IMG/VR virus record: IMGVR_UViG_3300009788_000096
Span: 31,403 to 95,402 of that record
Source: a virus
DNA: 64,000 nucleotides
Strand: one strand, 5' to 3'
Shown in pieces: positions 2,512 through 26,541 of the stretch (its first letter is position 1; the number at the start of each line of letters is the position of its first letter). A model generated the notes under the pieces. That model was not told the DNA's origin. It searched no databases and worked only from the letters and a program-made list of their open reading frames with translations. Made by a program: the position numbers and the translations under genes.

Positions 2512-3786
2512 ATGCCATACCAAACAGGCGTAGTAACACAATTTTTAGGAGCAAACGGATTACTTCAGAAACTTTTAGATTTTATATCAGGAACGGAAGT
2601 AACTGGAGAAACTTTATCTAGCAGCGGAGTCTCATGGTCTGGGAGTTTAGCGAGCTCTCCTGTTGGACTTGGAAGGCTTGTTATTACCTATGAATTTTCT
2701 TCAGTTGAATATGAGGCTACAGATGATGGTTCCGGAAATATCACTGGAACAAATATTTCTGCCGGTACTATCAACTATACCAATGGAGCTTACAGCATTA
2801 CTTTTACTGGCACACCGGACGCAGCGCCAACTGCCGATTATATCCACGGAGTTCCCGGACAGGATTGGCGTGTAGAATTAAACCGAACCACCAGAGATGA
2901 TGGTGGTGATGGATATACGGAACCATGTCCGGGAGCAAAGGAAGTAGTGCTTTCAAATACAGGTCTATCAGGAGCGGAAGCAGTTATTGTTGGAATCAGG
3001 GAATGCTTCTATGTGACGGAAGACTTTTATAACTGGGACTTAAACGGTTATCTGAATTTTAACGCAGCGGGTGAATGGGATCAAAACGCAATCACTCATG
3101 GGATGCCTACGTATAGTTCTACATTCGAAAGTTTTTATCGCCATCCCGGGATGGCACTTCGTAATGATACAATGAACTATTGGTTCTATTCGAATCAGCA
3201 GCGTTTTATAGTTATAGTAAAGGTTGCATCTAACTATGAATCATGTTATCTCGGCTTTGGCAGGCGATTTGGTAATCCCGGCGATTATCCTTATCCATTG
3301 TTTATCGGTGGTTGTATTAGTGGAAACAGAATATCATCTGATACTACATTGTTTCATCAATTTTTTATTCAAATAAATCGTGCAGATAATAACTGCCAAG
3401 TTTGGACTGTGACTCCGGGAACGGATTATATGACTTGGATAGGACAATCAAGCGCAAACGCGGGTCAAAGAATACTGCCTTACGGTACATGGGGAGATCT
3501 GGGTGCGCTTAACCCAACAAAGAATGGCGAACGAATAATGACTCCCGTTTATATATGCCCATATAGTTCGTTACTCGGTTCGCTATATTATGATCTGGAT
3601 GAAGTATATCATATTGCGGGCATTGGCTTACAAAGTGAAGACTTGGTTAATTATGCTGGCAGTAGGTATCGGGTATTTCAAAATATATTCCGAACAACTT
3701 ATTTTGACTATATGGCAGTAAAGGAAGGTGCCGCAGTTTCAACAACGACAACCACGACAACCACGACAACTACGACTTCAACTTAA
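2512..3786 (+). CDS. Virion protein with C-terminal poly-Thr tail
   Basis: A 424-residue protein four bases after the tape measure stop, with GGAG upstream of its ATG. The N-terminal half is rich in Gly, Ser and Thr with beta-strand character. The C-terminal half (about 200-400) resembles the next gene product: both contain a WF(F/Y)xN...F stretch, a PLFIGG-like turn, and a closing GER/GKR...M.P.VY block ending in YxVF. The last dozen residues are almost all Thr, encoded by mixed ACN codons. The position suggests a distal tail or adhesin component. Function is otherwise unknown. The Thr tail is shared with six other proteins in the window. Confidence 0.75.
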   Translation: MPYQTGVVTQFLGANGLLQKLLDFISGTEVTGETLSSSGVSWSGSLASSPVGLGRLVITYEFSSVEYEATDDGSGNITGTNISAGTINYTNGAYSITFTGTPDAAPTADYIHGVPGQDWRVELNRTTRDDGGDGYTEPCPGAKEVVLSNTGLSGAEAVIVGIRECFYVTEDFYNWDLNGYLNFNAAGEWDQNAITHGMPTYSSTFESFYRHPGMALRNDTMNYWFYSNQQRFIVIVKVASNYESCYLGFGRRFGNPGDYPYPLFIGGCISGNRISSDTTLFHQFFIQINRADNNCQVWTVTPGTDYMTWIGQSSANAGQRILPYGTWGDLGALNPTKNGERIMTPVYICPYSSLLGSLYYDLDEVYHIAGIGLQSEDLVNYAGSRYRVFQNIFRTTYFDYMAVKEGAAVSTTTTTTTTTTTTST

Positions 3787-3796
3787 GGAAAAGATT

Positions 3797-4765
3797 ATGA
3801 CTCTTTTAAATTATGCGTATTATGCAAATCCAACAAGTCATCACGATGTATTGACTAAGTTGAGGACTTTCGCTTTAGCACAAGGATGGACATCGGATTA
3901 TTATCATAGTGAAAGTGTCGAATGGGCCGCAACCGGTGGTTCTCCAGCTTATGACTTCATTGGTGGGGCCGAGTCTGCGTTGGGTCTTTGGTCTAATGGT
4001 CATGGTTTACAAGATTTAATTGTACGTTTTCGATGTACACAAAGTGGTGTGGATCCACAAAACGAAACGATGTATTGTGCTGGCATTCAGCCGGGAACGA
4101 GTCGAGTTCCCGATGGAGGTCAGTCTGCACAGCCGCATGCCCAAACAGGTTATTATACTCATTCAAGATATGCTACTCATTCAATGTCTCCCGGAACGAT
4201 GCATGGAGTTTGGTTCTTTGGCAATGCACACTTTATCTATATGGTTCTTGCTCCCGATTCTTCGTTTTGCACATTTCTTTTATTTGGAACCCCAAGCCTT
4301 TTTAAACCAACGGATAAGGGAGTTTATCTCGTTACGGGCGGCACTTACTTTGATTACTATGTCTATTGGTACGATGCATGGGGAGCTCAATCCAAGTACG
4401 CGCTTGCTCATGAAAGAACTGCAAACACAAGTTACTATAATAGTTGGGATGCGAATTATGATCGAAGGTTACCTACATGGCGTAATAGTACTTATGTTAA
4501 TGCCACAACTGTAATTTATAATACTTTATATTATGCCATTCAATTAAATTCATGGACTGGCAAACGAACCATGATTCAACCAATGGTTTATATGATGCGA
4601 TATCCTGATTCTGTTTACTATCCTCTTGGAACTTGGCCAGTTTTCTTAATCCCCTTTACTGGCCTTGGAATGGGAGACATATTGACTTATGGAGCAGAAC
4701 AATATATGGTTTTTCCAGATTCTTTTAATGTGAGACAAAACGGCATCGCATTTAGGATTGTATAA
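3797..4765 (+). CDS. Virion protein, paralogue of the preceding gene
   Basis: A 322-residue protein. The ATG at 3797 is chosen because AAGGA lies 9 bases upstream; a longer reading from 3728 would overlap the poly-Thr coding end of the previous gene in another frame. It resembles the C-terminal half of the previous product in its aromatic-rich WFFGNAHF segment and in a C-terminal block containing GKRTMIQPMVY and YMVF. It lacks a poly-Thr tail. It is rich in Tyr, Trp and His. It overlaps the next start by one base (TAATG). Probably a tail structural or tip protein; the exact role is unknown. Confidence 0.7.
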   Translation: MTLLNYAYYANPTSHHDVLTKLRTFALAQGWTSDYYHSESVEWAATGGSPAYDFIGGAESALGLWSNGHGLQDLIVRFRCTQSGVDPQNETMYCAGIQPGTSRVPDGGQSAQPHAQTGYYTHSRYATHSMSPGTMHGVWFFGNAHFIYMVLAPDSSFCTFLLFGTPSLFKPTDKGVYLVTGGTYFDYYVYWYDAWGAQSKYALAHERTANTSYYNSWDANYDRRLPTWRNSTYVNATTVIYNTLYYAIQLNSWTGKRTMIQPMVYMMRYPDSVYYPLGTWPVFLIPFTGLGMGDILTYGAEQYMVFPDSFNVRQNGIAFRIV

Positions 4766-5850: not shown

Positions 5851-6464
5851 TGGCTGATAGTTTAGAAGACTTAGGAGGTTATAGTATTTTTCCAGTTGAA
5901 CCCAATTGGCTTCATAAACCCAGTATGAATCTTGAGCTTGCAAGAATACTGATGAAGTATACTGGTACTGCCGCGAAGTTATCTTCCTTTACGGATCATG
6001 TGCCAGAAGCATGGAAGTTGGGTTTTACTCCAAGTAAAGAAGATGAACATGACTTAATCGTTTTTTTCATTGCAAGGTATGGAAAGCATGGTGGTTTCTG
6101 GATAAAGATTCCAGCGCGGGAGTTTACACTTTACTCTAATTCCCTTAGTGGTTCAACGGAAATAAGGGTTGAAAATAATGGTGCTGAGCAACAGTATCAG
6201 GGATACGAAAGAATTTGGATAGACATGCACAGCAATGATATTTTAACCCGCAAGGTATTGACTACCACCAAGGAAGATGATTATCTTTCGTTGGGACTTA
6301 GTGTCTCTTTGGATAGGGACGTTACACCATCCACTCATTTTAAAATTTGTCGATTGCTCTTTTGTAGATTTGATGAAGATATGTTGAAGATGAGTTTTGG
6401 TCAGAACCAGTACCCCGACATAACACTTGCGGTACGCGAATTAGTTAGGGAATATCCAGCATGA
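5850..6464 (+). CDS. Distal tail (Dit)-like protein
   Basis: A 204-residue protein that starts within the stop of its upstream neighbour and ends in an ATGA overlap. It begins with a short segment containing FPVEPNW, followed by a beta-rich body and a C-terminal region with ICRLLFCRFDEDML. Its slot directly before the DUF2163-like hub, the NlpC/P60 peptidase and the J-like tip matches the Dit/DUF2460 position of gene transfer agents and lambda-like tails. The similarity is positional and compositional. No diagnostic motif can be asserted. Confidence 0.55.
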   Translation: MADSLEDLGGYSIFPVEPNWLHKPSMNLELARILMKYTGTAAKLSSFTDHVPEAWKLGFTPSKEDEHDLIVFFIARYGKHGGFWIKIPAREFTLYSNSLSGSTEIRVENNGAEQQYQGYERIWIDMHSNDILTRKVLTTTKEDDYLSLGLSVSLDRDVTPSTHFKICRLLFCRFDEDMLKMSFGQNQYPDITLAVRELVREYPA

Positions 6465-10056: not shown

Positions 10057-12327
10057 ATGGCAAAGCTTTCACCGACACAATTACAGAAGTTAAAATATGC
10101 CACGCAGGGCTGGAATGAAATAATGGAGCGAAATGCTCGACTGCTGGATGAAACACTTCTGAAAGTATCCGGAATGGTCGATGTCAATTTGACTTCATTG
10201 TCGAATGATGATATGCTTGTATGGGATGTACCGACCCAGAAGTTTATCAACGTTCCTTGGAGTACGATAATTGCACCTACTACTACCACAACCACTTCGA
10301 CATCAACGACGACTGCGACTTCAACGACGACTGCGACTTCAGCGTTGCTCCTGCTGATTTATTACAACATGGAATCATTGCTGAATACAACTACAACAAC
10401 GACAACCACTACAACGACTACTGTTACAACGACGAGTTTTACTTGTGCCATCGGATATTCTGGGAACTTGTGTGGGGTTCCTACAAATGCGTTCTGTTAT
10501 CAAAACTACGGCGGTTATACATGCAGTCAGGCATTTACGGATCATACTGATCCATGGGCAAGTGGTCCTGCTGATCAACAATATAGTGGTTACACTTTTG
10601 GGGTTCCTCAAATTGTTAATAAGATTGATATCCAAGCCCATACCTCTCCATACAATCGCCATCCGGTCGCTTTCCAATTCCGTGCTTCTAATGGTTCTGC
10701 ACCAACTAATCTATCAGAAGCAGAAGGTGGTACGCAGATATTGCAAGTAAAGATGGCAGGGACGTTTGACTATCCAACCCACCATAGTGTTGGTGATCTT
10801 GGCCATTGGTCTTCTGAAGAAGTCAAAACTTGGACATTTTCAAATATCACCGCATATAAACACTATTGGATATTGATGTGGGATAAGGATGAAGCTAATT
10901 TTAGTAGAGGTGCTGATTTTCATATTGGCGAAATGAATATGTATAGTTGTGGGGCAAGGCTAAGTACTACCACAACAACGACTTCTACAACAACGACAAC
11001 TATGACTGTTTGTACGACAACAACTGTTACGGTACCATTTTATAAGTGTGCTTTAGATCCAGTCGATCTGGGTGCTAATATTACTTTGCAGCATTATAAC
11101 ATGAGGGCAATCCATTCTGCTGCCAGTGCTTGGAATTCCGCTATAAGTAAATATTATACAAGAAAGAATGCTTTCGGACAGAATAAGTTTTACTTTGAAA
11201 TTGAATGTCGACCTTCTACTGATGATCAATGGATTCTCGGTCTTGCCAATGAAAGTTTCAATGTTGATGGATATCCTGGCGATAGTACAGCCGGTTGGGG
11301 TTATCGTGGAAATGGGAACAAGTATTACAATGGGAGTGCTGGAGGTTATGGAGATGCATTTGGCGATGGCGACGTTATCGGTGTAGCCTTTAACTTGCTT
11401 ACAAATAAAGTTTGGTTCTCCAAGAATGGCGCATGGCAAGCCGGTGGTGATCCTGCTGCGGGTACGGGTGAAGCATATAGTAATTTGACTGGATCACAAT
11501 TCTATGCGGCAATCGGACTTTATCAAGAAACTCATGGTCAATTAAGATTGTCTTCAGATGATTGGGACTCTGTGGCACCTTCAGGATTTGTTGAATTTGC
11601 TTGTGATGAGATTACAACAACGACTTCAACAACGACAACCTCAACGACAACCACAACAAGTTCAGTAAGCACAACAACTGTTACGGTGCCATTATATAAG
11701 TGTGCTTTTGACCCGGCTAATAAAGGTGCTTTTATTACTTTGGAATATTACAATAAACGGGCTCGGTCAACCGGTTCTAATTGGGACTCTGCGGCAAGTA
11801 AATATTATACAAGAAAGAGTGCATTCGGACAAAATAAATTTTACTTTGAATCATATCTACATTCTGGAAATAATATGATTCATGGTATTGGAAATGAAAA
11901 CCTTGTCACTACAAATTATCCGGGCAGTGATGCAAATGGTTGGGGTTATAATACTGCCAATGGTAGAAAGTATCACAGTGGCGCTTGGACACTTATTGGT
12001 AGTGCAATGAGTCAAGGCGAAACTGTTGGTATCGCAATTGACTTAACTGATTTGGATATAGGCCAAGGCAAGATTTGGTTTGCCGATCAAGGTTCATGGA
12101 TAGAAGGCGATCCTGCAGCTGGCACCGGAGCAAGTTATAGTAATTTGACTGGAGCGCAGATTTATGCGCTGATCGCTGCCTATAGTAATGGTGTAACGGC
12201 CGAACTTAGATTATCTTCTGACGATTGGGTCCAGTCCGCTCCGTCGGGATTTGTTGAATTTGCTTGTGTTGAGATTACCACCACAACGACAACAACGACA
12301 ACCACTACAACGACAACTACAACATAG
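10057..12327 (+). CDS. Modular adhesin: short fibre module, F5/8C-like domain, two SPRY-like domains, poly-Thr linkers
   Basis: A 756-residue mosaic. Residues 1-70 form a short module (NRNARLLDE...DDMLVWD) that recurs in two downstream genes. Thr-rich tracts lie at about 75-95, 111-126, 304-322, 520-545 and at the C terminus. Between them sit a Cys-containing F5/8C-like domain (about 128-302) and two SPRY-like domains (about 326-518 and 545-735). The SPRY-like domains carry FGQNKFYFE, GWGY and KVWFSKNGAW or KIWFADQGSW motifs. The two SPRY copies are clear duplicates. Probably a carbohydrate- or protein-binding tail fibre. Residues 95-109 between the first two tracts look out of frame (see findings). 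Confidence 0.8.
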   Translation: MAKLSPTQLQKLKYATQGWNEIMERNARLLDETLLKVSGMVDVNLTSLSNDDMLVWDVPTQKFINVPWSTIIAPTTTTTTSTSTTTATSTTTATSALLLLIYYNMESLLNTTTTTTTTTTTTVTTTSFTCAIGYSGNLCGVPTNAFCYQNYGGYTCSQAFTDHTDPWASGPADQQYSGYTFGVPQIVNKIDIQAHTSPYNRHPVAFQFRASNGSAPTNLSEAEGGTQILQVKMAGTFDYPTHHSVGDLGHWSSEEVKTWTFSNITAYKHYWILMWDKDEANFSRGADFHIGEMNMYSCGARLSTTTTTTSTTTTTMTVCTTTTVTVPFYKCALDPVDLGANITLQHYNMRAIHSAASAWNSAISKYYTRKNAFGQNKFYFEIECRPSTDDQWILGLANESFNVDGYPGDSTAGWGYRGNGNKYYNGSAGGYGDAFGDGDVIGVAFNLLTNKVWFSKNGAWQAGGDPAAGTGEAYSNLTGSQFYAAIGLYQETHGQLRLSSDDWDSVAPSGFVEFACDEITTTTSTTTTSTTTTTSSVSTTTVTVPLYKCAFDPANKGAFITLEYYNKRARSTGSNWDSAASKYYTRKSAFGQNKFYFESYLHSGNNMIHGIGNENLVTTNYPGSDANGWGYNTANGRKYHSGAWTLIGSAMSQGETVGIAIDLTDLDIGQGKIWFADQGSWIEGDPAAGTGASYSNLTGAQIYALIAAYSNGVTAELRLSSDDWVQSAPSGFVEFACVEITTTTTTTTTTTTTTTT
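10303..10338 (+). repeat. Perfect tandem 18-bp repeat in a Thr tract
   Basis: Two exact copies of an 18-base unit (TCAACGACGACTGCGACT) lie back to back within the first Thr/Ser/Ala tract of the large adhesin gene. The unit keeps the reading frame, so it changes length in steps of six residues. Such units are prone to slipped-strand expansion or contraction. Confidence 0.9.
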
Positions 12328-12335: not shown

Positions 12336-13610
12336 ATGAAAAAGTTTCCTGACATTCAAGCGAATTATCCGGGTCGAGCATTTGGCGTCGTTCAAACGAC
12401 TACCAGACCTCTGCTCGGTACTTATAGCTTTGACTTCGACGGCACGGACTTTATAAGAACTGTAGTCCATCCCGGAACCGATATCAATATTGCGATTTCA
12501 TTATGGATTCGTTTTGATACGGTTCCAACGGATGCAGTCAATAGACCTGTTGCTATAATGAGTAATAGTGATGGAACTAATTCTGGTCTTGGATTAGTCA
12601 AAGTCACCGGAGCCGCAAGAGTTCATATGGTTCGTTCTGCAAATGGAGCTGCCGGAGCTTATGAAGTAGACGATCAAGCAACTCCCGGTTCTGGCTTTGC
12701 GGTTTCTCCTAATACTTGGTATCACATGGTTGTGCAGAAGACAACTACGAATTTTGAACTTTGGGTCAATGCTGTTAAGGTTCTTGATCGAGCCGGCTCC
12801 TTTGGCAATGCCGATGCGACCGGATTTGATGGATTACTTCTTGGCTCTAAAACAGATAATTCAAATGGAATCGACGGGAAGATTGATCAAGTCAAAGTAT
12901 TTGATCTTGGTACCAGCGGCGGTTTAGCTCAAAGTCAAATTCGTGAGTTATATTTTGAAGGTGCAACAACGACAACTACTTCAACGACAACCACGACAAC
13001 CACGACAACTACTTCAACAACGATTGATCTTTGTCCTGGTGGATATTCCTCTGAATTATGTACTGATGGGGTAAACAGGGCATTTTGTCGTCAGACCTAT
13101 GGTGGTTATCAATGTTCCTGGGCTTTTGATGGTAACTATAATAACCCGTGGGTGGGTGGTACATTAGATCAGCAATACGTTGGTTACAGTTTCGTCGTTC
13201 CACAAATTGTCAATAAATTTTCTATTCTTGCATATAATGGTTCGACATTTCCGAGGACGCCGGATGCTTTCCAACTCCGTGCTTCTAATACTGCTGCCCC
13301 AACTAATTTAACAGAAGCTGAGGGCGGTACATTAATCCATCAAGTAAAGATGCCGGGAACGTTTGACTACCCAACCCATCATACTGTTGGTAACCTCGGG
13401 CATTGGAGTCAAGGCGAACTTAAATCTTGGGAATTCGATAATGGCATTGCATATAAACATTATTGGATGCTGTTCTGGGACAAAGATGAAAACGACTTTG
13501 GTCGGAGTGGGGATTATAATTTTGGTGACCTCAGTATGTATAGCTGCGGCCCACGTTTAACAACGACAACCACGACAACCACGACTTCAACGACAACTAC
13601 TTCATCATAA
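12336..13610 (+). CDS. Adhesin: LamG-like domain, poly-Thr linker, F5/8C-like domain, poly-Thr tail
   Basis: A 424-residue protein. Residues about 28-205 read as a concanavalin/LamG-type domain: it starts YSFDFDGTDFI, contains NTWYHMVVQK in the centre and IDGKIDQVKVFD near the end. A Thr linker follows (about 210-228). Residues about 230-410 repeat the F5/8C-like domain of the preceding adhesin, with shared motifs GGYxCSxAF, DQQYxGYxFxVPQIVNK and TFDYPTHHxVGxLGHW. The protein ends in a Thr/Ser tract. Both domain types commonly bind glycans, so a host-surface binding role is inferred. The RBS upstream of its ATG is weak. Confidence 0.78.
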   Translation: MKKFPDIQANYPGRAFGVVQTTTRPLLGTYSFDFDGTDFIRTVVHPGTDINIAISLWIRFDTVPTDAVNRPVAIMSNSDGTNSGLGLVKVTGAARVHMVRSANGAAGAYEVDDQATPGSGFAVSPNTWYHMVVQKTTTNFELWVNAVKVLDRAGSFGNADATGFDGLLLGSKTDNSNGIDGKIDQVKVFDLGTSGGLAQSQIRELYFEGATTTTTSTTTTTTTTTTSTTIDLCPGGYSSELCTDGVNRAFCRQTYGGYQCSWAFDGNYNNPWVGGTLDQQYVGYSFVVPQIVNKFSILAYNGSTFPRTPDAFQLRASNTAAPTNLTEAEGGTLIHQVKMPGTFDYPTHHTVGNLGHWSQGELKSWEFDNGIAYKHYWMLFWDKDENDFGRSGDYNFGDLSMYSCGPRLTTTTTTTTTSTTTTSS

Positions 13611-13618: not shown

Positions 13619-13828
13619 ATGACTATACTATCACCCAGCGGTTTGGAAACGGACGATTATAGCCAAGCAAATTGGTGGGCAATCTATAACAGAAATGTGG
13701 AACTGTTGAATGCTGTTTTGATAAAGTTGCAGGGATTGGGAGACGTAAAGGTAGACAAGTTAAAAGATGACAGTTTTCTTTTCTGGGATGATGCTAATTC
13801 GAAATGGAAAGTGGGGATTTATCCATAA
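13619..13828 (+). CDS. Short tail fibre module protein
   Basis: A 69-residue protein that consists only of the short module found at the N terminus of the large adhesin (10057 gene): an aromatic start, NRNVELLNA, then DDSFLFWDDANSKW. AAGGTG precedes the ATG by a short spacer, and the stop overlaps the next start (TAATG). It may be an attachment subunit for an adhesin or a remnant left by module shuffling. Confidence 0.65.
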   Translation: MTILSPSGLETDDYSQANWWAIYNRNVELLNAVLIKLQGLGDVKVDKLKDDSFLFWDDANSKWKVGIYP

Positions 13829-14109
13829 TGGCAACCTATTATACATTGACTAACACTGGTTTGCGTTATTCTGATATTGGTTATTCTGCATGGAATGTCA
13901 ATGTCAATAACTATAACTGGAGCGCGCTCAATAATACTCTCTTGAAGTATTCGGCTTTGTTAGACGTTGATCCCACTGGCTTAGTTCAAGGCGACGTTTT
14001 AATATATAACTCATCTTCTGAAAAATGGGAAAGGAAAGCTTTAAACCCTGGCTATCACGTGATCAGTACAACGACAACTACGACTTCTACTACTACGACT
14101 TCGACATAA
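13828..14109 (+). CDS. Short tail fibre module protein with poly-Thr tail
   Basis: A 93-residue protein. It is a third copy of the short module (WNVNVNNYNWSALNNTLL ... GDVLIYNSSSEKWE), followed directly by a Thr/Ser tail of about 13 residues. The ATG at 13828 overlaps the upstream stop, so an upstream in-frame ATG at 13804 is not used. It shows the minimal form of the pattern seen in the large adhesins: a folded module plus a Thr tail. Confidence 0.65.
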   Translation: MATYYTLTNTGLRYSDIGYSAWNVNVNNYNWSALNNTLLKYSALLDVDPTGLVQGDVLIYNSSSEKWERKALNPGYHVISTTTTTTSTTTTST

Positions 14110-16086: not shown

Positions 16087-16154
16087 GGCTCCCGTCCTTA
16101 GGTTCCTCCCTTTGCCGTTGAAGCATTTACTTGCCAATACGGGGACGGGAAGCC
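16087..16154 (+). ncRNA. Candidate structured leader (long inverted repeat)
   Basis: GGCTCCCGTCC (16087-16097) pairs with GGACGGGAAGCC (16143-16154), an 11-bp stem with one bulged A around a 45-base interior. It occupies most of the gap between the fibronectin-like gene and a Cys-rich gene. No U-run follows, so it is not a plain terminator. It may be a 5' leader element. Confidence 0.4.
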
Positions 16155-16205
16155 ATTTAACTCCGCATTTGGGCTGATGAAGAATTGGGCTGGAAGGAAT
16201 TTGAA

Positions 16206-16598
16206 ATGGCACTGTCATGGAAGCGGAATGGAGACTGCGTTCGCTGCGGCTGGTGTTGTGAGAGAACACTTTATTATGACTATGAAGTAGAGGTTGGTAA
16301 TAATGAAGCGATTATACTCTCACTTAAAAAATGCAATACAAACGACTCTTTTATTAAGAAGGTTAATACATGGATCGAAGCGCATGAAATGGTTTATGAA
16401 GATCGAAGAGTAGTCAAGATAGAGGTTGGTTGTGAATTTTTTAAGTGGAAGTATAATGACGGAATGAGGAAGGGATTCTGTACCGTTTATAAAGACAAAG
16501 AGAAAGGATGTCAATACGATAAAAGAAAATCTTTTCCAGAATCAGTCAATGATTTATCCGTAGAAAATACCTGCGGGTATACATTCGAAAAGAAGTAA
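16206..16598 (+). CDS. YkgJ-like Cys-cluster protein
   Basis: A 130-residue protein. CVRCGWCCE near the N terminus (about 11-19) matches the CxxCGxCC motif of the YkgJ-type Zn/Fe-chelating family. Further Cys residues occur at C-terminal positions (GCEFFKW, GFCTVY, GCQYD, NTCGY). The ATG at 16206 is chosen because GGAAGG lies eight bases upstream. Its place among adhesin genes is odd. It could be a metal-dependent modification enzyme. Confidence 0.6.
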   Translation: MALSWKRNGDCVRCGWCCERTLYYDYEVEVGNNEAIILSLKKCNTNDSFIKKVNTWIEAHEMVYEDRRVVKIEVGCEFFKWKYNDGMRKGFCTVYKDKEKGCQYDKRKSFPESVNDLSVENTCGYTFEKK

Positions 16599-16616
16599 TT
16601 CGAAAGGAATTGAGAA

Positions 16617-19367
16617 ATGACAATCCAAGAATTAGATATGGAAAATGGCGATTATGATTTGACTTCATTAATTACCGTGTTAACTCATATTCCCGATGCC
16701 GATAATGCTATGGAATGTCGAGCTCTCGTATTTTTTGGTGATGGCACTAAGAATCTTGATGGCACAGGTGGAAACTTCAATGTTGTCATAACTATTGGGA
16801 GTCAAACATTACAGCCCAGTCCGAAGGTTTATACCTTTGGAACGGAAGTACGATCTGCTCTCCGCACTGATCCATTTACTGTCCCCGCAAACGAACAAGT
16901 TATAGTCAAAGTTCTATCTCCAAATGGTGCTGATACAGATGTTGATGTCACAGCATATCTTCATAGTGACAATGTTGCAAACGACGTTTGGGATGAATTA
17001 CTTACAGGCGGAACTCATAATATTGCGACAAGCGCAGGACGCCGGCTCCGGACTTTACAAGATTTCGGTCTTTATGAAGGCGGAGCGGTATGGGTTGATA
17101 CGGTGAATGGTGTCGCCGGAACAGTCAATTTTGAAAACGGGGTAGTAAACAATCCTGTGGATAGCATTGCAGATGCGAAGACAATAGCAGACAGCATCGG
17201 GCTCAAAACAATCCATTTCCTTGCGGGATCGTCTGTAACTCTTGCAGAAGCATTTGACAGCTTTGTTTTTGAAGGAATGGCATATACGGTTGATTTAAAC
17301 GGACAGTCTGTTAATGGGACATGGTTTCAAAGAGCGACTATTGTTGGAAATGACGATGGTTCAAATACGATTCCGACACGTTATCTTCGTTGCATAATGG
17401 GAAACAATACTCTCGGGTTATCATACCTTGGAGATTGTGCGTTTGAAGGGGATTTGGTGTTGGCGCAAGAGGGCACCTATATTACAGATCGTTGTTTGTC
17501 AGCAGTTGCCGGAACAGAAACTCCGTCCATTGATTTTCAAAACGAGAACGAAAATAAATATTTGAACATGCGCCATTATTCTGGAGGGATTGAAATTAAA
17601 AACTTTGGTCATGGGACAGCAGATCACCATATGTCACTTGAGGGTGATGGTCAGCTTGTCTTTAATTCGAATTGTTCAAATGCCAATGCCGGTGATGAAC
17701 TCGCTATTCGTGGAAATTTTACTATCACTGATAATGTAGGTGGTGGATGGGCTGGCACATTATCTGATGATGCCAGATTTGACTCTGTGGAATTAGTGGA
17801 TAACGTTTGGGATGAATTACTTACGGGTGGAGCGCATAATATTCCGACTTCTGCGGGAAGAAGATTGCGCGAAATTGCAGGCACTGTTATTGCTTCTGAT
17901 ATTGCGCAAGGTCCGGGCACTGGAAACAATCAAATTCAATTGGCTGCCGCCGCTTCCGCAGTTGACGGCGCTTATGATCCAGCGATGGTTGTAATAATGT
18001 TAGGGACAGGAGCAGGACAAAGCCGATTAATTTATGAGTATGACGGCGCAACCAAAATTGCAACTGTAGATCGAAATTGGAAAGTAAATCCAAGTACCGA
18101 TAGTGAATATGTTCTCTTCGGCCATCCAGGAAGAGAACACGTTAACGAAGGACTTGCTCAAGCCGGATCAACGAGCAGCACGATTAAGTTAAATTCACTG
18201 GCAAGTGATCAAGATAATATTTACAATGGGCAGATGGTTTTTATCCGGTCAGGTACTGGAGAAGATCAGGTTGGGCTTGTGAAGTCATACGTTGGAGGTA
18301 CTAAAGTTGCAACGATGTGGGATAACTGGGGCGTAACACCTGACGGTACAAGCGGTTACGTAATGATGCCGATGGATATGCGACCAGAAACCATAGCAAG
18401 AGGAGTTTGGGATAGATTAGTTGCGAGTCATTTAACTTCTGGAAGCGCAGGTTTGGCTCTGATGCATACCACTTATGGTAGTGTAGTTCATATTGATACG
18501 GTTGGCGGCAGTGCAGGTACAACGTATCCAAAAGGCACAGTTGAAGATCCAGTGGATAATTATGCCGATGCAAAGATAATAGCGACAACGTATGGTTTAG
18601 AAGAGTTTCACTTGCTCAGCAATTTGACTCTTGGAGCTTCTGATAATGCAGATAATTTTAAATTTTCCGCTCCGACTGGTATTAATATTATATTAACAGT
18701 AACTTCAGGTTGCAGTACAATCAATACAACTTTTGAACGATTGGTTCTAACAGGCACATTAGATGGTGGTGTTTGGATAGAACGATGTAGTATTGCGGGA
18801 CTGAATGACATTCAAGGATTTGTACTTGAATGTATATTTTTGGCAAATAGTTCTCTTACTGGTCCTTCTTCTACAGTAATGTATAATTGTGGCACCGCAG
18901 TAGTAGCCCCACCGATTACATTGGGTTTAAACAGTTCACCACTAACTATGGCAGGTTGGAAAGGCGGACTAAAAATAGGAAGCAAAATTGGTTCTCAAAA
19001 TATTATAATAGATTTATTGTCCGGCACTTTGGAAATTGCTTCAACTTGCACTGCTGGAAAAATAATTGTCAAAGGCATTGGGCATATAACAGCAGATAAC
19101 TCAGGTGCTAACTGCATTATAGACACCACCGATTTAATAAAGGCAAGTCATATTGACTTCATGAAAAATATAGAAGGCGGACGTTGGAGAATTAATCATA
19201 TAACTCATCAAATGTTATTCTACAAAGAAGATAATGTTACGGAAGTTGCGCGGTTTAATTTATTTGATCATGCTGGAATCCCAGCGTCTGAAAACGTATA
19301 CGAAAGAGTTCGAGTGACAACCACAACAACTACAACAACCACTACTACTACCACAACATCAAGTTAG
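16617..19367 (+). CDS. Long repeat-containing tail fibre with poly-Thr tail
   Basis: A 916-residue protein. The N-terminal 120 residues form a beta domain. Two related repeat units follow: NVWDELLTGGxHNIxTSAGRRLR occurs at about 121-144 and 397-420, and a beta-helix-like unit with VxxDTVxGxAGT...PVDxxADAKxIA occurs at about 160-210 and 625-670. The long beta-solenoid-like stretches suggest an elongated trimeric fibre. The C terminus carries 14 Thr followed by SerSer, the longest pure Thr run in the window. Probably a side or tail fibre. Confidence 0.75.
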   Translation: MTIQELDMENGDYDLTSLITVLTHIPDADNAMECRALVFFGDGTKNLDGTGGNFNVVITIGSQTLQPSPKVYTFGTEVRSALRTDPFTVPANEQVIVKVLSPNGADTDVDVTAYLHSDNVANDVWDELLTGGTHNIATSAGRRLRTLQDFGLYEGGAVWVDTVNGVAGTVNFENGVVNNPVDSIADAKTIADSIGLKTIHFLAGSSVTLAEAFDSFVFEGMAYTVDLNGQSVNGTWFQRATIVGNDDGSNTIPTRYLRCIMGNNTLGLSYLGDCAFEGDLVLAQEGTYITDRCLSAVAGTETPSIDFQNENENKYLNMRHYSGGIEIKNFGHGTADHHMSLEGDGQLVFNSNCSNANAGDELAIRGNFTITDNVGGGWAGTLSDDARFDSVELVDNVWDELLTGGAHNIPTSAGRRLREIAGTVIASDIAQGPGTGNNQIQLAAAASAVDGAYDPAMVVIMLGTGAGQSRLIYEYDGATKIATVDRNWKVNPSTDSEYVLFGHPGREHVNEGLAQAGSTSSTIKLNSLASDQDNIYNGQMVFIRSGTGEDQVGLVKSYVGGTKVATMWDNWGVTPDGTSGYVMMPMDMRPETIARGVWDRLVASHLTSGSAGLALMHTTYGSVVHIDTVGGSAGTTYPKGTVEDPVDNYADAKIIATTYGLEEFHLLSNLTLGASDNADNFKFSAPTGINIILTVTSGCSTINTTFERLVLTGTLDGGVWIERCSIAGLNDIQGFVLECIFLANSSLTGPSSTVMYNCGTAVVAPPITLGLNSSPLTMAGWKGGLKIGSKIGSQNIIIDLLSGTLEIASTCTAGKIIVKGIGHITADNSGANCIIDTTDLIKASHIDFMKNIEGGRWRINHITHQMLFYKEDNVTEVARFNLFDHAGIPASENVYERVRVTTTTTTTTTTTTTTSS

Positions 19368-21370: not shown

Positions 21371-21388
21371 AAACCGCCACTCATAACC

Positions 21389-21409
21389 GTGACCCCATAG
21401 GGGAATCAC
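21389..21409 (+). promoter_or_regulatory. Second leader hairpin before the GT4 gene
   Basis: GTGACCCC, loop ATA, GGGG, a bulged AA, then TCAC give an 8-bp stem. It ends six bases before the AAGGAG ribosome site of the GT4 gene and may tune access to it. Confidence 0.4.
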
Positions 21410-21429
21410 AAATGAAAAGGAGAAGTCAA

Positions 21430-22755
21430 ATGTTTAAACCTCAGAACGTAGCCATCCTCACCAACTTCCAAGATTTCAATCCCGGCTATTCCCTGTCAGG
21501 AATCGTAGCGGACCAATGTATAATGCTTGATCGCTACGGCCACAAAGTTCATCTTTATACTTGTGATAGTTATAATGATGAATTCGATGATGTTGACCTG
21601 CCATGTGAAGTACACCGAAAAATTCCGTTTTGTCACCTTACCGATTACAAAGAGGAAAAGGATTTTTCCAAGGAACACGAGATGTATGGCAAAACGTTGA
21701 AGAATGTTTTGGTGGAAGAATTCAAGACGAAGAAAATCGAGATTGCTTTTACTCATGATTGGATTTTCACCGGATGGAATCTTCCGTTTTCTTATGGTAT
21801 CCGCCTTGCCAACCCACATCTGGGTGGAGTCAATTGGATGCATTGGGTTCATAGCGTTCCTTCTGATCTTGAATATCCGCAAGGTAGGGATTGGTGGGAT
21901 ATTAGGAGATATGGCCCGAATCATAAAATTATTTTCCCCAATGCCATCGAAAGAACCCGGGTGGCCGAACAGTTTAAAGGACAAATTGATGATGTCCGTA
22001 TAATCCCGCATATCAAGGATCTGCGAACATGGTATGACTTTGATGAGGAAACATGGGAATTCATAGATGACTTCCCCGGCGTAATGCAAGCGGACATTGT
22101 GCAAATCTATCCGGCTTCCACTGATCGTCTTCGTGCGAAACAGATCGACATGGTTGCAAATCTTTTTGCTCGCTTTAAAGAAAAAGGTTTTACTGTTTGT
22201 CTTGTCGTTGCAAACCAATGGGCAACCGAAAAAGAGCAGGAAAAAGATATCCAAAACTTTTTGGATCTTGCACCTAAACTGGGATTGAAGCCAAATGAAG
22301 AATTGATCTTTACTTCGGCATGGAAAGATGGCAAGTATAATACCGGTCTACCGAAGAAGATATTGAGGGAGCTGCAATTATGTTCCAATATTTTCGTCTT
22401 CCCAACGGTAGAGGAATCATTTGGTCTGGTTGGACCGGAGGCTGCGCTTGGTGGTAACTTCATGGTTCTAAACAAAAGTCTTTATATGATGTTCGAGATA
22501 TTTGGGAACTCTGGACTTTACTGTGATTTCGGTTCCTACCATAACATCTTCGATCCTAAAAATATTGGAATTACTATGGATCAATATCTGGCAGGGGTTT
22601 GTAATCTGATTCTGGGGAGGTTTTCACAGAATGAAGTATTTCAAACCCGGACTTGGTGTCGAAGAGTTTATAATATGGATAACCTATATAATCAAGTCTA
22701 CCAACCGTTGATGGCAGAGTCCCGTCTGTGGGGCTTCCCCACCAAAGCATTATAA
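21430..22755 (+). CDS. GT4-family (GT-B) glycosyltransferase
   Basis: A 441-residue retaining-type glycosyltransferase. The C-terminal Rossmann domain has FPTVEESFGLVGPEAALGG, the E-x7-E signature of GT4 enzymes, which use nucleotide sugars. The N-terminal domain begins VAILTNFQDFNPGYSLSG, a sugar-acceptor loop. The ATG at 21430 is chosen: AAAAGGAG lies eight bases upstream and would be wasted as codons for MKRRSQ if the ATG at 21412 were used. It is the first gene of the modification cassette behind P3. Confidence 0.8.
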   Translation: MFKPQNVAILTNFQDFNPGYSLSGIVADQCIMLDRYGHKVHLYTCDSYNDEFDDVDLPCEVHRKIPFCHLTDYKEEKDFSKEHEMYGKTLKNVLVEEFKTKKIEIAFTHDWIFTGWNLPFSYGIRLANPHLGGVNWMHWVHSVPSDLEYPQGRDWWDIRRYGPNHKIIFPNAIERTRVAEQFKGQIDDVRIIPHIKDLRTWYDFDEETWEFIDDFPGVMQADIVQIYPASTDRLRAKQIDMVANLFARFKEKGFTVCLVVANQWATEKEQEKDIQNFLDLAPKLGLKPNEELIFTSAWKDGKYNTGLPKKILRELQLCSNIFVFPTVEESFGLVGPEAALGGNFMVLNKSLYMMFEIFGNSGLYCDFGSYHNIFDPKNIGITMDQYLAGVCNLILGRFSQNEVFQTRTWCRRVYNMDNLYNQVYQPLMAESRLWGFPTKAL

Positions 22756-22765
22756 GGAGGCAAAG

Positions 22766-23986
22766 ATGGAGATAACCATTAAGTCATTTAACGGCATTGG
22801 TGATTTACTTTTTGTAACTCCAACGCTGAAAGTAATTAAGGAGGCCTATCCTGATTGTCATATAACAGTCAATACTAATTATCCGGACTTGTTGGAGGAC
22901 AATCCAAACGTTGACGTGATTGGATCTGAGAACGTAGGAACGTTTCTGGGGTACGATGATCCAATTCACCAGAAATGGCCGACAGCGCATCATATATTAA
23001 AGGACTGGCATATAATCTGTGAAGAATATGGCCTGCATACTGATAAGCCAGCGCTGCAACCAGAACTTTATCTTAATTTTATGACGGCACTGGATGTGCT
23101 TGAAAAACATCGATCCCCAATAGGAGTGCAAATTATACACAAGGGGCATTGGCATGCAAAAAAGATTTGGCCTAAATTTGATTATCTTTCGCGGCTCCCT
23201 AAGTTTGTGCCAATTCCAAAGGTGCCTTCGATTAAGGATTTGATTTACTTCATTGCTTGTTGCAAGGCGGTAGTATGCGCTGAAGGTGGAATCTCACATA
23301 TCGCAAAGGCAGTAGGAACACCAGCGATAGTCATTTACGGAGGCTTTGCCAAACCGGAATGGAATGGTTATGAAGATCAAATAAATGTTTGCAATGAAAA
23401 ATGGTGTTCCTATTGTTACAACCCGAAACCATGCGAAAATGAAATTGAAAGAATTTGCATGAAAGAAATTTCAATCGAACACGTTTGCCGGCTGGCTGAA
23501 GGTTTGGAAAAGATTCCAGAGCTTGAACAACACAATGCAATGAAGTTTATAAAAGAAGATGCTTTATGTTGGTCAAGAACCTGCTCTTCCCATAGACCCG
23601 ACATGTTAGATATCGGTGCTGGCAATAATCCCTTGCGTGGCGCGAGAGGGATAGATACAGGTAAAGATGAAGATGCTTATAACATCTACACAGCGGATCG
23701 TTCGCAAGATTTTATCTTCTCTTCCCATTGCATCGAGCATTTGGATTATCCTTCTAAAGCTTTGAGAGAATGGAGCAGAGTGCTTCGTACCGGCGGTCTG
23801 CTTTATCTTTATTTCCCGTCGCCGGATTATATACCTTGGAGACAGAAGTCAATGCCGAAATGGCATAAGCATGATTTTCGCATTGAAAGTATTTTGGCAA
23901 TGCTCCCCGACGATTTATACCCAATTGAAATCGCCCATACAGATTGGTTCTTCGGTCAAAAAATTATAGCGAGAAAGGAAAAGTAA
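22766..23986 (+). CDS. GT9-like glycosyltransferase fused to a SAM methyltransferase
   Basis: A 406-residue two-domain enzyme. Residues 1 to about 235 match ADP-heptose:LPS heptosyltransferase-like GT9: GIGDLLFVTPTL near the start, and AEGGISHIAKAVGTPAIVIYGG near 173-194. A Cys-rich stretch follows (KWCSYCYNPKPCENEIERIC). From about 275 the sequence is a class I methyltransferase: MLDIGAGNNPLRGARG as motif I, then SSHCIEHLDYP and LRTGGLLYLYFP. The fusion suggests addition and capping of a sugar by one polypeptide. GGAGG precedes the ATG. Confidence 0.75.
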   Translation: MEITIKSFNGIGDLLFVTPTLKVIKEAYPDCHITVNTNYPDLLEDNPNVDVIGSENVGTFLGYDDPIHQKWPTAHHILKDWHIICEEYGLHTDKPALQPELYLNFMTALDVLEKHRSPIGVQIIHKGHWHAKKIWPKFDYLSRLPKFVPIPKVPSIKDLIYFIACCKAVVCAEGGISHIAKAVGTPAIVIYGGFAKPEWNGYEDQINVCNEKWCSYCYNPKPCENEIERICMKEISIEHVCRLAEGLEKIPELEQHNAMKFIKEDALCWSRTCSSHRPDMLDIGAGNNPLRGARGIDTGKDEDAYNIYTADRSQDFIFSSHCIEHLDYPSKALREWSRVLRTGGLLYLYFPSPDYIPWRQKSMPKWHKHDFRIESILAMLPDDLYPIEIAHTDWFFGQKIIARKEK

Positions 23987-23987
23987 A

Positions 23988-24770
23988 ATGGCTAAAAAAA
24001 TGATCAAGAAGCAAAAACTTAAATGCACGGCGGAGGGTTACAAAGAAGCATTGAACCGGGTGAGGGCTGCGGAAGATCCTGTTGATGCGCTTTGCAAATT
24101 TTATAATGAAACAGTCGGGATGAAAAAAGGCCGGACGGTTTTCGATACGCAATTTGTTCCGTTCATCGAGAAGTATGGATGTGACAGGGAAATAAGTTTG
24201 GAGATTGGCTATGGCCCCGGTTCTCTTGTGGCCGAAGCAGGGAAGCATTTCCGTGAGACATGGGGGATAGATGCTCATGAGGCACGGAATCTGGTTGGCC
24301 ATTTGTTGGAAGCAAATGAATGCTATAACTATAAACTCCTTATCAGTCCTGATGGAAGAAGTATTCCCACGAAGAAAAATAACATTGACTTCATTTATTC
24401 ATGGACTGTTTTTATGCACTTCGGGAAAATCGGTATCGCCAGTGATTATCTTCGTGATGCCTATGCGGTTTTGAAACCGGGAGGTCTGGCGCTCATTTAC
24501 TTCTCCAGAATGTATCGAAGTCGAAAGCATGAAACAAAAGAGGAATGGCTGGCTGCAATTGAGCACGAAGAGGAAATGGAACGGTATCGAGAGATTAGTG
24601 GCAGTACAATCCAAAAGATTAATCTTCAAATCTCCATGCAGCAAATGGTTGATATGTGCGAATGTGTCGGTTTTGAAGTCTTGGAACGAACGGCATCGAC
24701 CAGAAGAATCGACGGAATACTTTGCCACCACGGTCAACATGGGGTAGTACTTCGAAAAGAAAAGGAGTAA
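23988..24770 (+). CDS. SAM-dependent methyltransferase
   Basis: A 260-residue class I methyltransferase. Motif I is LEIGYGPGSLVAEAG at about 71-85, followed by GIDAHEA. A post-motif FIYSWTVFMHFGK and YAVLKPGGLALIYFSR complete the fold. It lies one base after the fusion gene and three bases before a sulfotransferase-like gene. Probably methylates a sugar in the same pathway. The substrate is not deducible. Confidence 0.7.
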   Translation: MAKKMIKKQKLKCTAEGYKEALNRVRAAEDPVDALCKFYNETVGMKKGRTVFDTQFVPFIEKYGCDREISLEIGYGPGSLVAEAGKHFRETWGIDAHEARNLVGHLLEANECYNYKLLISPDGRSIPTKKNNIDFIYSWTVFMHFGKIGIASDYLRDAYAVLKPGGLALIYFSRMYRSRKHETKEEWLAAIEHEEEMERYREISGSTIQKINLQISMQQMVDMCECVGFEVLERTASTRRIDGILCHHGQHGVVLRKEKE

Positions 24771-24773
24771 AAC

Positions 24774-25496
24774 ATGAGAGAAAAAGAAGTTGCAGTTGTG
24801 GCAATGCCAAGGACAGGCTCCACATATCTTTTTAGATGCTTGGCTGGTCTCAAGCATGCAGGTGGAAGTCCGAAAGGCGCCAACCTTGCAAAGCTTCCAA
24901 TAATGAAGTGCCACAGTTTAGCTCCACCCGAAACTTTCGGTGATCCGTGGTCAAGCCAAATAAGTGAGCATTGTCTTAAAGGAAGAAAAGTCATTTGGCT
25001 TTTCGGTGATCCAATAGCTTCTGTCGTTTCCACAATGAAGAAAAGGTTTGACCATGTTCATGCGAAGAATTGTGGCTGCTTTAAACCGCTGGGGATGGTG
25101 GATCTGATAGATAGAGATGACTTTAACTATGAGTGGATGTTTGACTCATGGACATCTATCCGACATGACTTTCCCGTTTTATGTGTAAGGTATGAAACCT
25201 TATGGAAAAACCGTTTTGTGATCGAATGGTTTCTGGGAAGAAAAGTCAAATGGAATGAGTGGAGTCCTCGGTCTAACAGGTGGACCACAGAAGAACTTCC
25301 AAACTTTCTTTCGAAAGCCTTAAATAAAACCTATTCAAGTTTGGTTGAAAAAGTTCAAATGCATCCGGATGTAACTTTAAATGGTGGAGATACATTGAGA
25401 ATATCCGGGGATTTGGTAAGGATAGAAAAAGGCGTTGGATTTGGCAAAAACTATTTTTATGACTTAGTAAAAAAAGGAGAAACGGAAAATGGCTGA
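24774..25496 (+). CDS. Second sulfotransferase-like protein
   Basis: A 240-residue protein. MPRTGSTYLF at about 11-20 is the PAPS 5'-phosphosulfate loop in its commonest form (RTGST). WLFGDPIASVVST at about 75-87 is in the place of the 3'-phosphate motif, but has Gly-Asp where Arg-(D/H)-Pro is usual. The key Arg may therefore be missing or supplied elsewhere. The end overlaps the next gene by eight bases. It is diverged from the sulfotransferase at 20012. Confidence 0.6.
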   Translation: MREKEVAVVAMPRTGSTYLFRCLAGLKHAGGSPKGANLAKLPIMKCHSLAPPETFGDPWSSQISEHCLKGRKVIWLFGDPIASVVSTMKKRFDHVHAKNCGCFKPLGMVDLIDRDDFNYEWMFDSWTSIRHDFPVLCVRYETLWKNRFVIEWFLGRKVKWNEWSPRSNRWTTEELPNFLSKALNKTYSSLVEKVQMHPDVTLNGGDTLRISGDLVRIEKGVGFGKNYFYDLVKKGETENG

Positions 25497-26541
25497 GCTG
25501 TCAATTATTGTACCGTATGTGAACGAGTATCCACAAATCCTTTTTACACTTCAAAGTATTGCGCAAGACCTACGAGGTCGCGTTGACTTTGAAGTCATTG
25601 CTGTAAACAACTATTGCGATGAAGTCATTGCTCAAGATCGCGATAGCACAAGACGAATCATTCGAAGATTAAAAGCATTTTACAATATCGAGGCTTCAGA
25701 TGAAGAAATTGTTGAAACATTGGTCGGTGAAGAAATTGGACTCATTGGGCCAGAAGATAAAGGTGGCAAGGCAGTAGAAGCATGTGCTAAAGGGAACGAC
25801 TGGCTTACGGCGATTTCATACACGGACAAGTTAAGTCATTGGAATGCGAAGCGTTTCGGCATTGAAAATAGCAGTGGTGATTATTTTCAATTCATTGATT
25901 CCCATTGCATCGTCGGCCGGAATTTGCTGTATGATATGTTTGACTTTTATAAAGATAACGCTTGGAGCATGGATGGCACGCTCCATCCGCCCTTGACATA
26001 TCTCATTTTGGAATGGCGAAGATTAATATATGGATTAAGATTTGTCCATACCGAAAAACAAGCGCAACTTGACTATAAGTTTTCGAGTTACCAACATCCC
26101 GAGAGTGGCTTGCCATACGAGGTTCCGTGTATGTCGACTTGTGGTATGCTAATGACTCGGGAGCTATACGAAGAAACTGGTGGCTGGCCTAAAGAACTGG
26201 GAATTTATAGTGGAGGCGAGCACTTCATGAATTTCACCCTTGCTGTTCTTGGAAAGAAGAAGTATATCTTTCCAACTAAATTTGCGTTGTATCATCATGC
26301 CGAAAAAAGAGGATATGCTTTTAACTCCGGTGATACTCTTCGCAATCGCTTAATAGCAGCATATCTATACGGTGGCCTTGATTGGTTTTATGAAAATATA
26401 AAGAAGTGTAAAGGTCGGCCAAATGTGATTAAGAAGTTTCAAGCGGAGATTCCATTATTGTGCAAAGATCAGCGGCAATGGATTAAAGATCGACAAGAGA
26501 TGACTATATTCGAATGGCTGGAAAAGTGGGGAAAGATATGA
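25489..26541 (+). CDS. GT-A glycosyltransferase with polypeptide GalNAc-transferase-like motifs
   Basis: A 350-residue GT-A enzyme. SIIVPYVNEYPQILFTLQSI at about 5-24 is the GT2/GT27 start. DSHC at 137-140, preceded by AKRFGIENSSGDYFQFI, is the metal-binding D-x-H motif in the form seen in polypeptide GalNAc-transferases (LDSHCE/LDAHCE) rather than the GT2 DxD. A later block, CGMLMTRELYEETGGWP then YSGGEH (242-245), parallels the AGGLFSI...IWGGEN region of that family. ALYHH near 266-270 may be the third metal ligand. An unusual insert lies at about 45-110. No lectin domain is present. Peptide Thr/Ser is therefore a credible acceptor. The family link is by motif only. Confidence 0.65.
   Translation: MAELSIIVPYVNEYPQILFTLQSIAQDLRGRVDFEVIAVNNYCDEVIAQDRDSTRRIIRRLKAFYNIEASDEEIVETLVGEEIGLIGPEDKGGKAVEACAKGNDWLTAISYTDKLSHWNAKRFGIENSSGDYFQFIDSHCIVGRNLLYDMFDFYKDNAWSMDGTLHPPLTYLILEWRRLIYGLRFVHTEKQAQLDYKFSSYQHPESGLPYEVPCMSTCGMLMTRELYEETGGWPKELGIYSGGEHFMNFTLAVLGKKKYIFPTKFALYHHAEKRGYAFNSGDTLRNRLIAAYLYGGLDWFYENIKKCKGRPNVIKKFQAEIPLLCKDQRQWIKDRQEMTIFEWLEKWGKI

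What the first reader, a model, noticed from the sequence alone, without database searches (positions are those of the whole stretch)
2512..26541. Poly-threonine adhesin tails next to a mucin-like glycosylation cassette
Seven proteins carry Thr or Thr/Ser tracts of about 10-20 residues: genes at 2512, 10057, 12336, 13828, 16617, 19373 and 21162. The tracts are mostly C-terminal, with linkers between domains in two of them. The gene order then runs straight into sulfotransferase, GT4, GT9-methyltransferase, methyltransferase, sulfotransferase and a GT-A enzyme. The GT-A enzyme has a DSHC metal motif (137-140) and a GGEH segment (242-245), like those of polypeptide GalNAc-transferases, whose acceptors are clustered Thr/Ser. 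The tracts are encoded by mixed ACN codons, so they are kept at protein level. I infer that this phage O-glycosylates, and perhaps sulfates and methylates, its own tail proteins, producing mucin-like brushes. The sequence shows the tracts and motifs; the acceptor link is inference.
Basis: partly seen in the sequence, partly recalled or inferred. Interest (0 to 1): 0.88.

Follow-up and report, generated by a model that had tools for sequence, protein, structure and literature searches.

The report
Phage virions with glycosylation-ready threonine tails
A large group of uncultured phages puts runs of threonine (or serine) on the ends of its capsid-associated, tail-tube and fibre proteins, and carries its own sugar-attaching enzymes, one of which is predicted to fold like the animal enzymes that start mucin glycosylation, so these phages may coat themselves in a mucin-like sugar brush.

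Summary
The tracts are real and were undercounted. Besides the seven genes in the window, the 95-kb contig has Thr tails on a 50-aa protein next to the major capsid protein and on the tail-tube protein. The same tails recur in dozens of related phages and in unrelated ones. Within a phage the capsid-side and tail-tube tails switch between Thr and Ser together (independent contrasts r=0.77, p=7e-11), with no clear sign of gene conversion. The predicted structure of the GT-A enzyme is closest to polypeptide GalNAc-transferases (GT27): all top 50 PDB matches, best E=1.1e-15. Thr/Ser tracts occur in 56 of 67 contigs carrying the cassette's GT4, against 0 of 27 random viral contigs and 0 of 3 tailless capsid relatives, which also lack the GT4 and this GT-A. 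A second, unrelated Thr-tailed phage lineage has its own GT-A whose best enzyme match is also GT27. Best reading: the tails are acceptor tags for phage-encoded O-glycosylation (often with sulfo- and methyl-transferases) that coats capsid, tail and fibres. The chemistry is untested and the donor sugar unknown. Virion glycosylation is known in mycobacteriophages, but without such tails and with an unrelated enzyme, so this is a new variant.

The parts
2512..3786 (+). virion protein, 424 aa, C-terminal STTTTTTTTTTTTST tail (3739-3783)
   Evidence: no Pfam domain
10057..12327 (+). fibre/adhesin-like protein, 756 aa, SPRY domains (2 matched stretches), four internal T/S linkers and terminal T16
   Evidence: SPRY E=3.7e-22
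12336..13610 (+). fibre/adhesin-like protein, 424 aa, LamG-like domain, T/S linker (12966-13022), terminal T/S tail (13560-13607)
   Evidence: Laminin_G_3 E=1.6e-11
13828..14109 (+). small protein with C-terminal STTTTTTSTTTTST tail
16617..19367 (+). large virion/fibre protein, 916 aa, C-terminal T14SS tail
   Evidence: tract DNA reproduced in L004
19373..20002 (+). 209-aa protein, C-terminal T14SS tail
   Evidence: tract DNA reproduced in L004
20012..20686 (+). ST1, sulfotransferase-like by motifs only (GGHGTTY / VRHPLHAYVSY)
   Evidence: sequence; no Pfam or NCBIfam match; homologue in contig G040
21162..21296 (+). 44-aa ORF with N-terminal T10ST5 tract
21412..22755 (+). GT4/GT-B glycosyltransferase, the cassette gene most widely shared by tract-bearing phages
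   Evidence: weak PF13439; phrog_2170 glycosyltransferase; GT-B fold matches
22766..23986 (+). GT9-like domain fused to a methyltransferase
   Evidence: Glyco_transf_9 2.9e-11, Methyltransf_11 6.5e-10
23988..24770 (+). methyltransferase
24774..25496 (+). ST2, sulfotransferase-like
   Evidence: Sulfotransfer_1 E=2.8e-4, just below the gathering score
25489..26541 (+). GT-A glycosyltransferase with GT27-like predicted fold; DSHC 137-140, GGEH 242-245
26514..26942 (+). conserved cassette-associated protein of about 142 aa, function unknown, also beside the cassette of Ser-tailed phage G050
   Evidence: no Pfam or NCBIfam match

Best explanation
The Thr (or Ser) runs are acceptor tags. They are appended mostly to the C-termini of capsid-side, tail-tube, tail and fibre proteins, and used as linkers inside multidomain fibres. 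During late infection the phage's own cassette O-glycosylates them. The GT27-like GT-A is the most likely initiating, peptide-modifying enzyme; the GT4 and GT9-like enzymes would extend the glycan and the methyl- and sulfotransferases would cap it. The product would be a dense, probably anionic, mucin-like brush on the virion surface, shielding it or changing what it sticks to. Shown: the tails, their recurrence and co-variation, the cassette, the predicted fold of the GT-A, the association. Inferred: that the tails are the substrate, which enzyme initiates, donor sugars, sulfation, and the biological benefit.
For: 1) Tails sit on virion proteins: beside the capsid protein, on the tail tube (phrog_807) and on fibre genes. 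2) In 49 non-redundant capsid relatives the two unrelated proteins share tail composition: Ser fraction Pearson 0.88; independent contrasts r=0.77, p=7e-11; Ser-type tails in five separate places of the capsid tree, both proteins each time; last residue identical in 26 of 49 vs 12.1 expected. That fits one modifying enzyme acting on both. Codon match is near random (0.34 vs 0.29, p=0.10), so recent gene conversion is not evident. 3) GT-A model (pLDDT 83): top 50 PDB matches all GT27. 4) GT4 contigs: 56/67 with tracts vs 0/27 random viral contigs. 5) Tailless capsid relatives G084, G090, G081: no tract and no cassette GT4 or GT-A; Thr-tailed relatives with enough downstream sequence: 12 of 13 have the GT4 (p=0.007). 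6) Unrelated Thr-tailed phages G023/G028 have a different D-x-H GT-A whose best PDB hit is again a GT27 enzyme, E=5e-5. 7) One subgroup adds a UDP-sulfoquinovose synthase homologue (SQD1, E=5e-94) and a sulfotransferase-like gene.
Against: No chemistry. Some GT4 contigs lack tracts, including an 83-kb one (G102). A tailless relative (G084) has other D-x-H GT2 genes among its head genes, so that motif does not prove a tail acceptor. GT-A sequence similarity to GT27 is weak (E=0.002) and the best-scoring PDB chains by sequence are other GT2-type enzymes; the GT27 lectin domain is absent. Related phages share ancestry, so the Fisher tests overstate independence. Host-envelope modification by the same cassette is not excluded.
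Confidence: 0.72

Rival explanations
1. The cassette modifies the host envelope (O-antigen/capsule conversion, superinfection exclusion), and the Thr tails are merely flexible linkers or stalks.
For: GT4, GT9-like and OafA-like genes are typical envelope-modifying genes; a relative sits beside host-type genes in a Desulfobacteraceae MAG contig and carries an OafA-like acyltransferase; GT9-like domain resembles heptosyltransferases.
Against: Does not explain GT27 as the nearest fold, homopolymer tails after the last domain of the tail-tube and capsid-adjacent proteins, shared Thr/Ser switching, or the absence of tails and of this cassette together in G084, G090, G081. The cassette follows the tail genes on the same strand.
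Confidence: 0.15
2. Only DNA-level behaviour: ACN microsatellites or recombination hot spots for swapping fibre domains, with no protein-level role for Thr.
For: Imperfect 9-18 bp periodicities; tracts separate domains in fibre genes (10057, 12336).
Against: Mixed codons; tails fall in frame and directly before the stop in many unrelated genes; switching to Ser needs different DNA yet happens in both genes at once; codon match between the two tails near random.
Confidence: 0.04
3. The tails are glycosylated, but the initiating enzyme is the GT4 or a host O-glycosyltransferase; the GT-A only extends. (A sub-case of the best explanation; its confidence overlaps.)
For: The GT4 is more widespread than this GT-A among Thr-tailed phages; bacterial O-glycosylation of Ser-rich adhesins by GT4-type GtfA/B is established knowledge (not tested here).
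Against: GT-A fold points to peptide acceptors; two independent Thr-tailed lineages carry GT27-resembling GT-A enzymes; the GT4 model matches general GT-B enzymes such as MshA with low TM-scores.
Confidence: 0.3
4. Unmodified Thr/Ser tails act as intrinsically disordered entropic bristles on the virion.
For: Very low-complexity hydrophilic tails; one phage keeps only short TTTTV tails (L335); Ser-rich and Ser/Glu-type versions exist.
Against: Does not account for the linkage to a glycosyltransferase cassette or for restriction to hydroxy-amino acids.
Confidence: 0.1

Closest known systems
Virion glycosylation of mycobacteriophages (Che8, Corndog, Myrna; Freeman et al. 2023, cited in PMC12363180, PMC11256854 and PMC12619734; the original paper was not held)
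   Same: Phage-encoded glycosyltransferases; glycans reported on the capsid and tail-tube proteins, at their C-termini according to PMC12619734; GT genes in a small cluster.
   Different: Che8 capsid and tail proteins have no Thr tail; the Che8 GT gp110 is unrelated to the GT-A here; no sulfotransferase-like genes annotated next to its GT genes.
GT27 polypeptide GalNAc-transferases and mucin tandem repeats (animals, apicomplexans)
   Same: Predicted GT-A fold, D-x-H metal motif, GGEN/GGEH segment; acceptors would be clustered Thr/Ser; capping by sulfation occurs in mucins (established knowledge).
   Different: Weak sequence similarity, Pfam match is GT2 (PF00535), no lectin domain, phage-encoded, donor unknown, C-terminal homopolymer tags instead of repeat domains.
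Serine-rich-repeat adhesin glycosylation in Gram-positive bacteria (GtfA/B)
   Same: Low-complexity Ser/Thr acceptor plus dedicated glycosyltransferases including a GT4 (established knowledge).
   Different: Here virion proteins with short terminal tags; GtfA/B were not among the listed top 50 PDB matches of the GT4 model.

Membership tests
GT27 polypeptide GalNAc-transferase | GT-A fold closest to GT27 | tested here: met
   Foldseek top 50 all GT27, best E=1.1e-15
GT27 polypeptide GalNAc-transferase | D-x-H metal motif | tested here: met
   D137 and H139 invariant in 8 homologues, aligned to DSH of PGANT9
GT27 polypeptide GalNAc-transferase | WGGEN-type segment and third metal His | tested here: inconclusive
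   GGE invariant, N or H next; aligned to WGGEN; invariant H269 lies within one position of the GT27 His
GT27 polypeptide GalNAc-transferase | clear sequence membership of the family | tested here: not met
   Pfam hit is PF00535; no NCBIfam hit; PDB profile hit to GT27 only E=0.002
GT27 polypeptide GalNAc-transferase | C-terminal ricin-type lectin domain | tested here: not met
   350 aa, predicted helical C-terminus, no lectin Pfam hit
GT27 polypeptide GalNAc-transferase | transfers GalNAc to Ser/Thr of peptides | not testable with these tools
   needs enzymology
Mycobacteriophage-type virion glycosylation | phage-encoded glycosyltransferases | tested here: met
Mycobacteriophage-type virion glycosylation | glycans at C-termini of capsid and tail-tube subunits | not testable with these tools
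   Thr tails are at the C-termini of the tail tube and the capsid-adjacent protein; glycans not observable
Mycobacteriophage-type virion glycosylation | glycosyltransferase homologous to Che8 gp110 | tested here: not met
   hhalign probability 0.2%
Serine-rich-repeat adhesin glycosylation (GtfA/B) | GT4 of the GtfA/B type | tested here: inconclusive
   weak GT4 Pfam match; GT-B fold, no GtfA among top 50

The most novel reading that the evidence does not exclude
Phages in several unrelated lineages run a self-contained mucin-type O-glycosylation system: hydroxy-amino-acid homopolymer tags are placed on capsid, tail tube and fibres and decorated by a GT27-like enzyme, and the tag (Thr or Ser) changes in concert across proteins of one virion, giving sulfated or sulfonated mucin-like coats on bacterial viruses.
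Probability: 0.5. Interest if true: 0.92.

Novelty: new variant of a known kind. Interest (0 to 1): 0.84.

Why it matters
If true, GT27-like peptide O-glycosylation exists in phages and may help explain where the animal enzyme family came from. It gives a readable genomic signature (C-terminal Thr/Ser homopolymers) for predicting glycosylated virions in uncultured phages, and a compact tag-plus-enzyme set for making O-glycosylated proteins in bacteria. It also makes the question of why phages glycosylate their particles testable outside mycobacteria, since tailed, Ser-tailed and tailless close relatives exist.

Tried and rejected
Chance: shuffles never reached 8 T/S in a row. Assembly artefact: rejected by identical tract DNA in other assemblies. 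Recent gene conversion between tails: codon match near random. A 'Ser-type' GT-A (A4, from Ser-tailed G050 and from G089, which has Ser tracts) as a marker for Ser tails: distant relatives lack tracts, so dropped. Poly-Ser-stop DNA scan: none of the 80 loci examined had a true Ser tail by my ORF test. Apparent poly-Ser runs at 38415-38560 and 57045-57245 of the window lie opposite minus-strand ORFs and read there as acidic codons, so not counted. Cultured phages: no INPHARED record has a homologue of the GT-A or GT4; the capsid protein is about 39% identical to mycobacteriophage capsid proteins. DNA modification as the role of this cassette: the phage has a separate candidate DNA glucosyltransferase on the other strand. 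Papers: two searches for polythreonine plus phage found no description of such tails; a survey of low-complexity regions reports Ala, Gly and Pro, not Thr, as most enriched in phages (PMC6821194). Searches failed on input or script errors and were repeated where needed.
Full report
WHAT IS THERE. The window is the right-hand 64 kb of a 95,402-base virus record. The head and tail genes run on the plus strand: major capsid protein (39% identical to that of Mycobacterium phage Mendokysei), tail-tube protein (phrog_807), tape measure, tail assembly proteins, then fibre-like genes with SPRY and LamG domains, then the sugar cassette. All seven Thr-tract genes of the finding are real, with mixed ACN codons and no counterpart in 200 shuffles. 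Two further tails lie upstream of the window: on a 50-aa protein (MSYETVRNWMKTNPAVPPQMRKWAEGIDGSVTWITTTTTTSTSTTTTTSS) directly after the capsid gene, and on the tail-tube protein. So tails mark the capsid side, the tail tube and the fibres, not only adhesins. Gene 21162 is the exception in having its tract at the N-terminus.

THE TAIL IS A GENERAL TAG. A DNA-pattern search for (ACN)11 followed by TAA in viral contigs gave 40 loci, most of them encoding true Thr tails in frame. In phages with unrelated structural genes (G023, G028, G001) other proteins carry the tail: a candidate capsid protein (by size and gene order, not otherwise tested), connector-like proteins and tail proteins. A search with the capsid family gave 80 loci. 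In most of them both the small capsid-adjacent protein and the tail tube end in Thr/Ser tails; a handful (L188, L195, L196, L197, L202, L204, L205) have none by the test used. Among 49 non-redundant phages the Ser fraction of the two tails is strongly correlated (Pearson 0.88), also after correction for the capsid tree (contrasts r=0.77, n=48, p=7e-11). Ser-type tails turn up in five separate places of the tree, in both proteins each time. The last residue matches in 26 of 49 cases against 12.1 expected; for example both tails of L158 end in TTTTTE. Codon identity between the two tails is near random, so selection on the protein is the simplest cause. In one phage that failed my length cut-off (L335), four proteins end in short Thr tails such as TTTTV. 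A few capsid-adjacent ORFs (L161, L171, L194) were picked greedily and may be wrong; they do not drive the result, which rests on the Thr versus Ser classes.

THE ENZYMES. The GT-A is a Glycos_transf_2 match. Its homologues keep D-x-H-C and GGE(N/H). Its AlphaFold2 model (pLDDT 83) has polypeptide GalNAc-transferases as all of its top 50 PDB matches (E=1.1e-15 to 2.7e-12, TM 0.57-0.69 on the query). By sequence the relation is weak (E=0.002) but the motifs align. The GT4 model matches general GT-B enzymes with low TM-scores, and a 47-residue stretch is poorly predicted. ST2 resembles sulfotransferases just below the Pfam threshold; ST1 only by motif. A conserved protein of about 142 aa of unknown function (26514-26942) accompanies the cassette, also in Ser-tailed phage G050.

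CO-OCCURRENCE. Of 10 viral contigs with a close GT-A relative, all carry the GT4. Every one of them that I read in full has Thr/Ser tracts, except a 17-kb fragment (G040), and this includes backbones with no detectable homology to the window phage in head and tail genes (G041, G042, G044, G046). The GT4 family search gave 67 contigs: 49 have tracts of at least 8 T/S within 10 kb and 7 more elsewhere on the contig, 56 of 67, against 0 of 27 random viral contigs (Fisher p=4e-15, not corrected for shared ancestry). Within the capsid family, 12 of 13 Thr-tailed phages with enough downstream sequence have the GT4. The tailless relatives G084 (84 kb), G090 (90 kb) and G081 (40 kb) have neither tracts nor this GT4 or GT-A. 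They do have other GT2 genes, and in G084 two carry a D-x-H motif among head genes, so glycosyltransferases as such are not specific to tailed phages. Ser-tailed G050 and G087 lack the GT4 and GT-A but have other glycosyltransferases at the same place; the idea that one of these is a Ser-specific enzyme was not borne out by distant relatives. Thr-tailed phages G023 and G028, unrelated in backbone, have their own GT-A whose best enzyme match in the PDB is again GT27 (E=5e-5). A subgroup (G007, G037, G068, G086, G089) has a more distant GT4, a UDP-sulfoquinovose synthase homologue (SQD1, E=5e-94; NCBIfam 329 bits, below its cut-off) and a sulfotransferase-like gene, which suggests anionic sugars.

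HOST. GT-A relatives in genome assemblies were found only in a Desulfobacteraceae MAG and a deltaproteobacterial MAG, both next to Thr-tailed proteins and the GT4. In the first, the stretch continues into host-type genes, as a prophage would. No cultured phage in INPHARED has the GT-A or GT4.

HOW IT MOST LIKELY WORKS. Shown: tails, their shared evolution, the cassette, predicted folds, association. Inferred: late in infection the GT-A (or the GT4) adds a first sugar to clustered Thr/Ser of the tails, other enzymes extend and cap it, and the mature virion carries a mucin-like, probably negatively charged brush. Possible benefits are shielding from proteases, or controlled sticking to surfaces and extracellular matrix in sediments; none of this was tested.

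COMPARISON. Virion glycosylation is known: Che8, Corndog and Myrna glycosylate capsid or tail-tube proteins with their own enzymes (PMC12363180), at C-termini according to PMC12619734. Che8 has no Thr tails on its capsid or tail protein, and its gp110 is unrelated to the GT-A here. The system therefore works like a known kind but differs in acceptor design and in enzyme type, hence 'new variant of a known kind'. It is not filed as GT27: fold and D-x-H motif are met, but sequence membership and the lectin domain are not.

LIMITS. Everything is computational; phages share ancestry; many contigs are fragments; the tract cut-off of 8 misses short tails; the random control set is small (27 contigs).

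Noticed in passing
window 45052-52312 (-): Four radical-SAM-like genes (one with a B12-binding domain) surround a beta-glucosyl-HMC-alpha-glucosyltransferase homologue (phrog_842, E=2e-31, 46041-46919); a possible separate DNA-modification cluster.
   Followed up: no
window 41271-44648 (-): DNA polymerase III alpha with a uracil-DNA-glycosylase domain at its C-terminus (residues 972-1105) in one ORF.
   Followed up: no
window 26514-26942 (+): Conserved protein of about 142 aa with no Pfam or NCBIfam match, found beside the glycosyltransferase cassette in Thr- and Ser-tailed phages.
   Followed up: partly
L109:16903-18138 (G037) and G007, G068, G086, G089: Phage genes homologous to UDP-sulfoquinovose synthase SQD1 (E=5e-94 for G037) within the cassette of a Thr-tailed subgroup.
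   Followed up: partly
L257:1886-11904: Probable prophage end in a Desulfobacteraceae MAG with a T-rich-tailed protein, GT4, GT-A and an OafA-like acyltransferase on the other strand, followed by host-type genes.
   Followed up: partly
L206 (G084) 16151-17134 (-): A tailless capsid relative has D-x-H GT2 genes between head-tail connector genes; it may glycosylate its virion without homopolymer tails.
   Followed up: no
L335:67-9933: Four proteins end in very short Thr tails (STTV, TTTTV, TTTTTV), suggesting a minimal version of the tag.
   Followed up: partly
G086:24644-25219 and 41192-41767; G068:1101-1676 and 16602-17180: Two Thr-tailed proteins of about 192 aa per genome, one near the terminase and one the tail tube; possibly a duplicated tail-tube gene.
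   Followed up: no
window 32778-32849 (-): One tRNA gene (Rfam).
   Followed up: no
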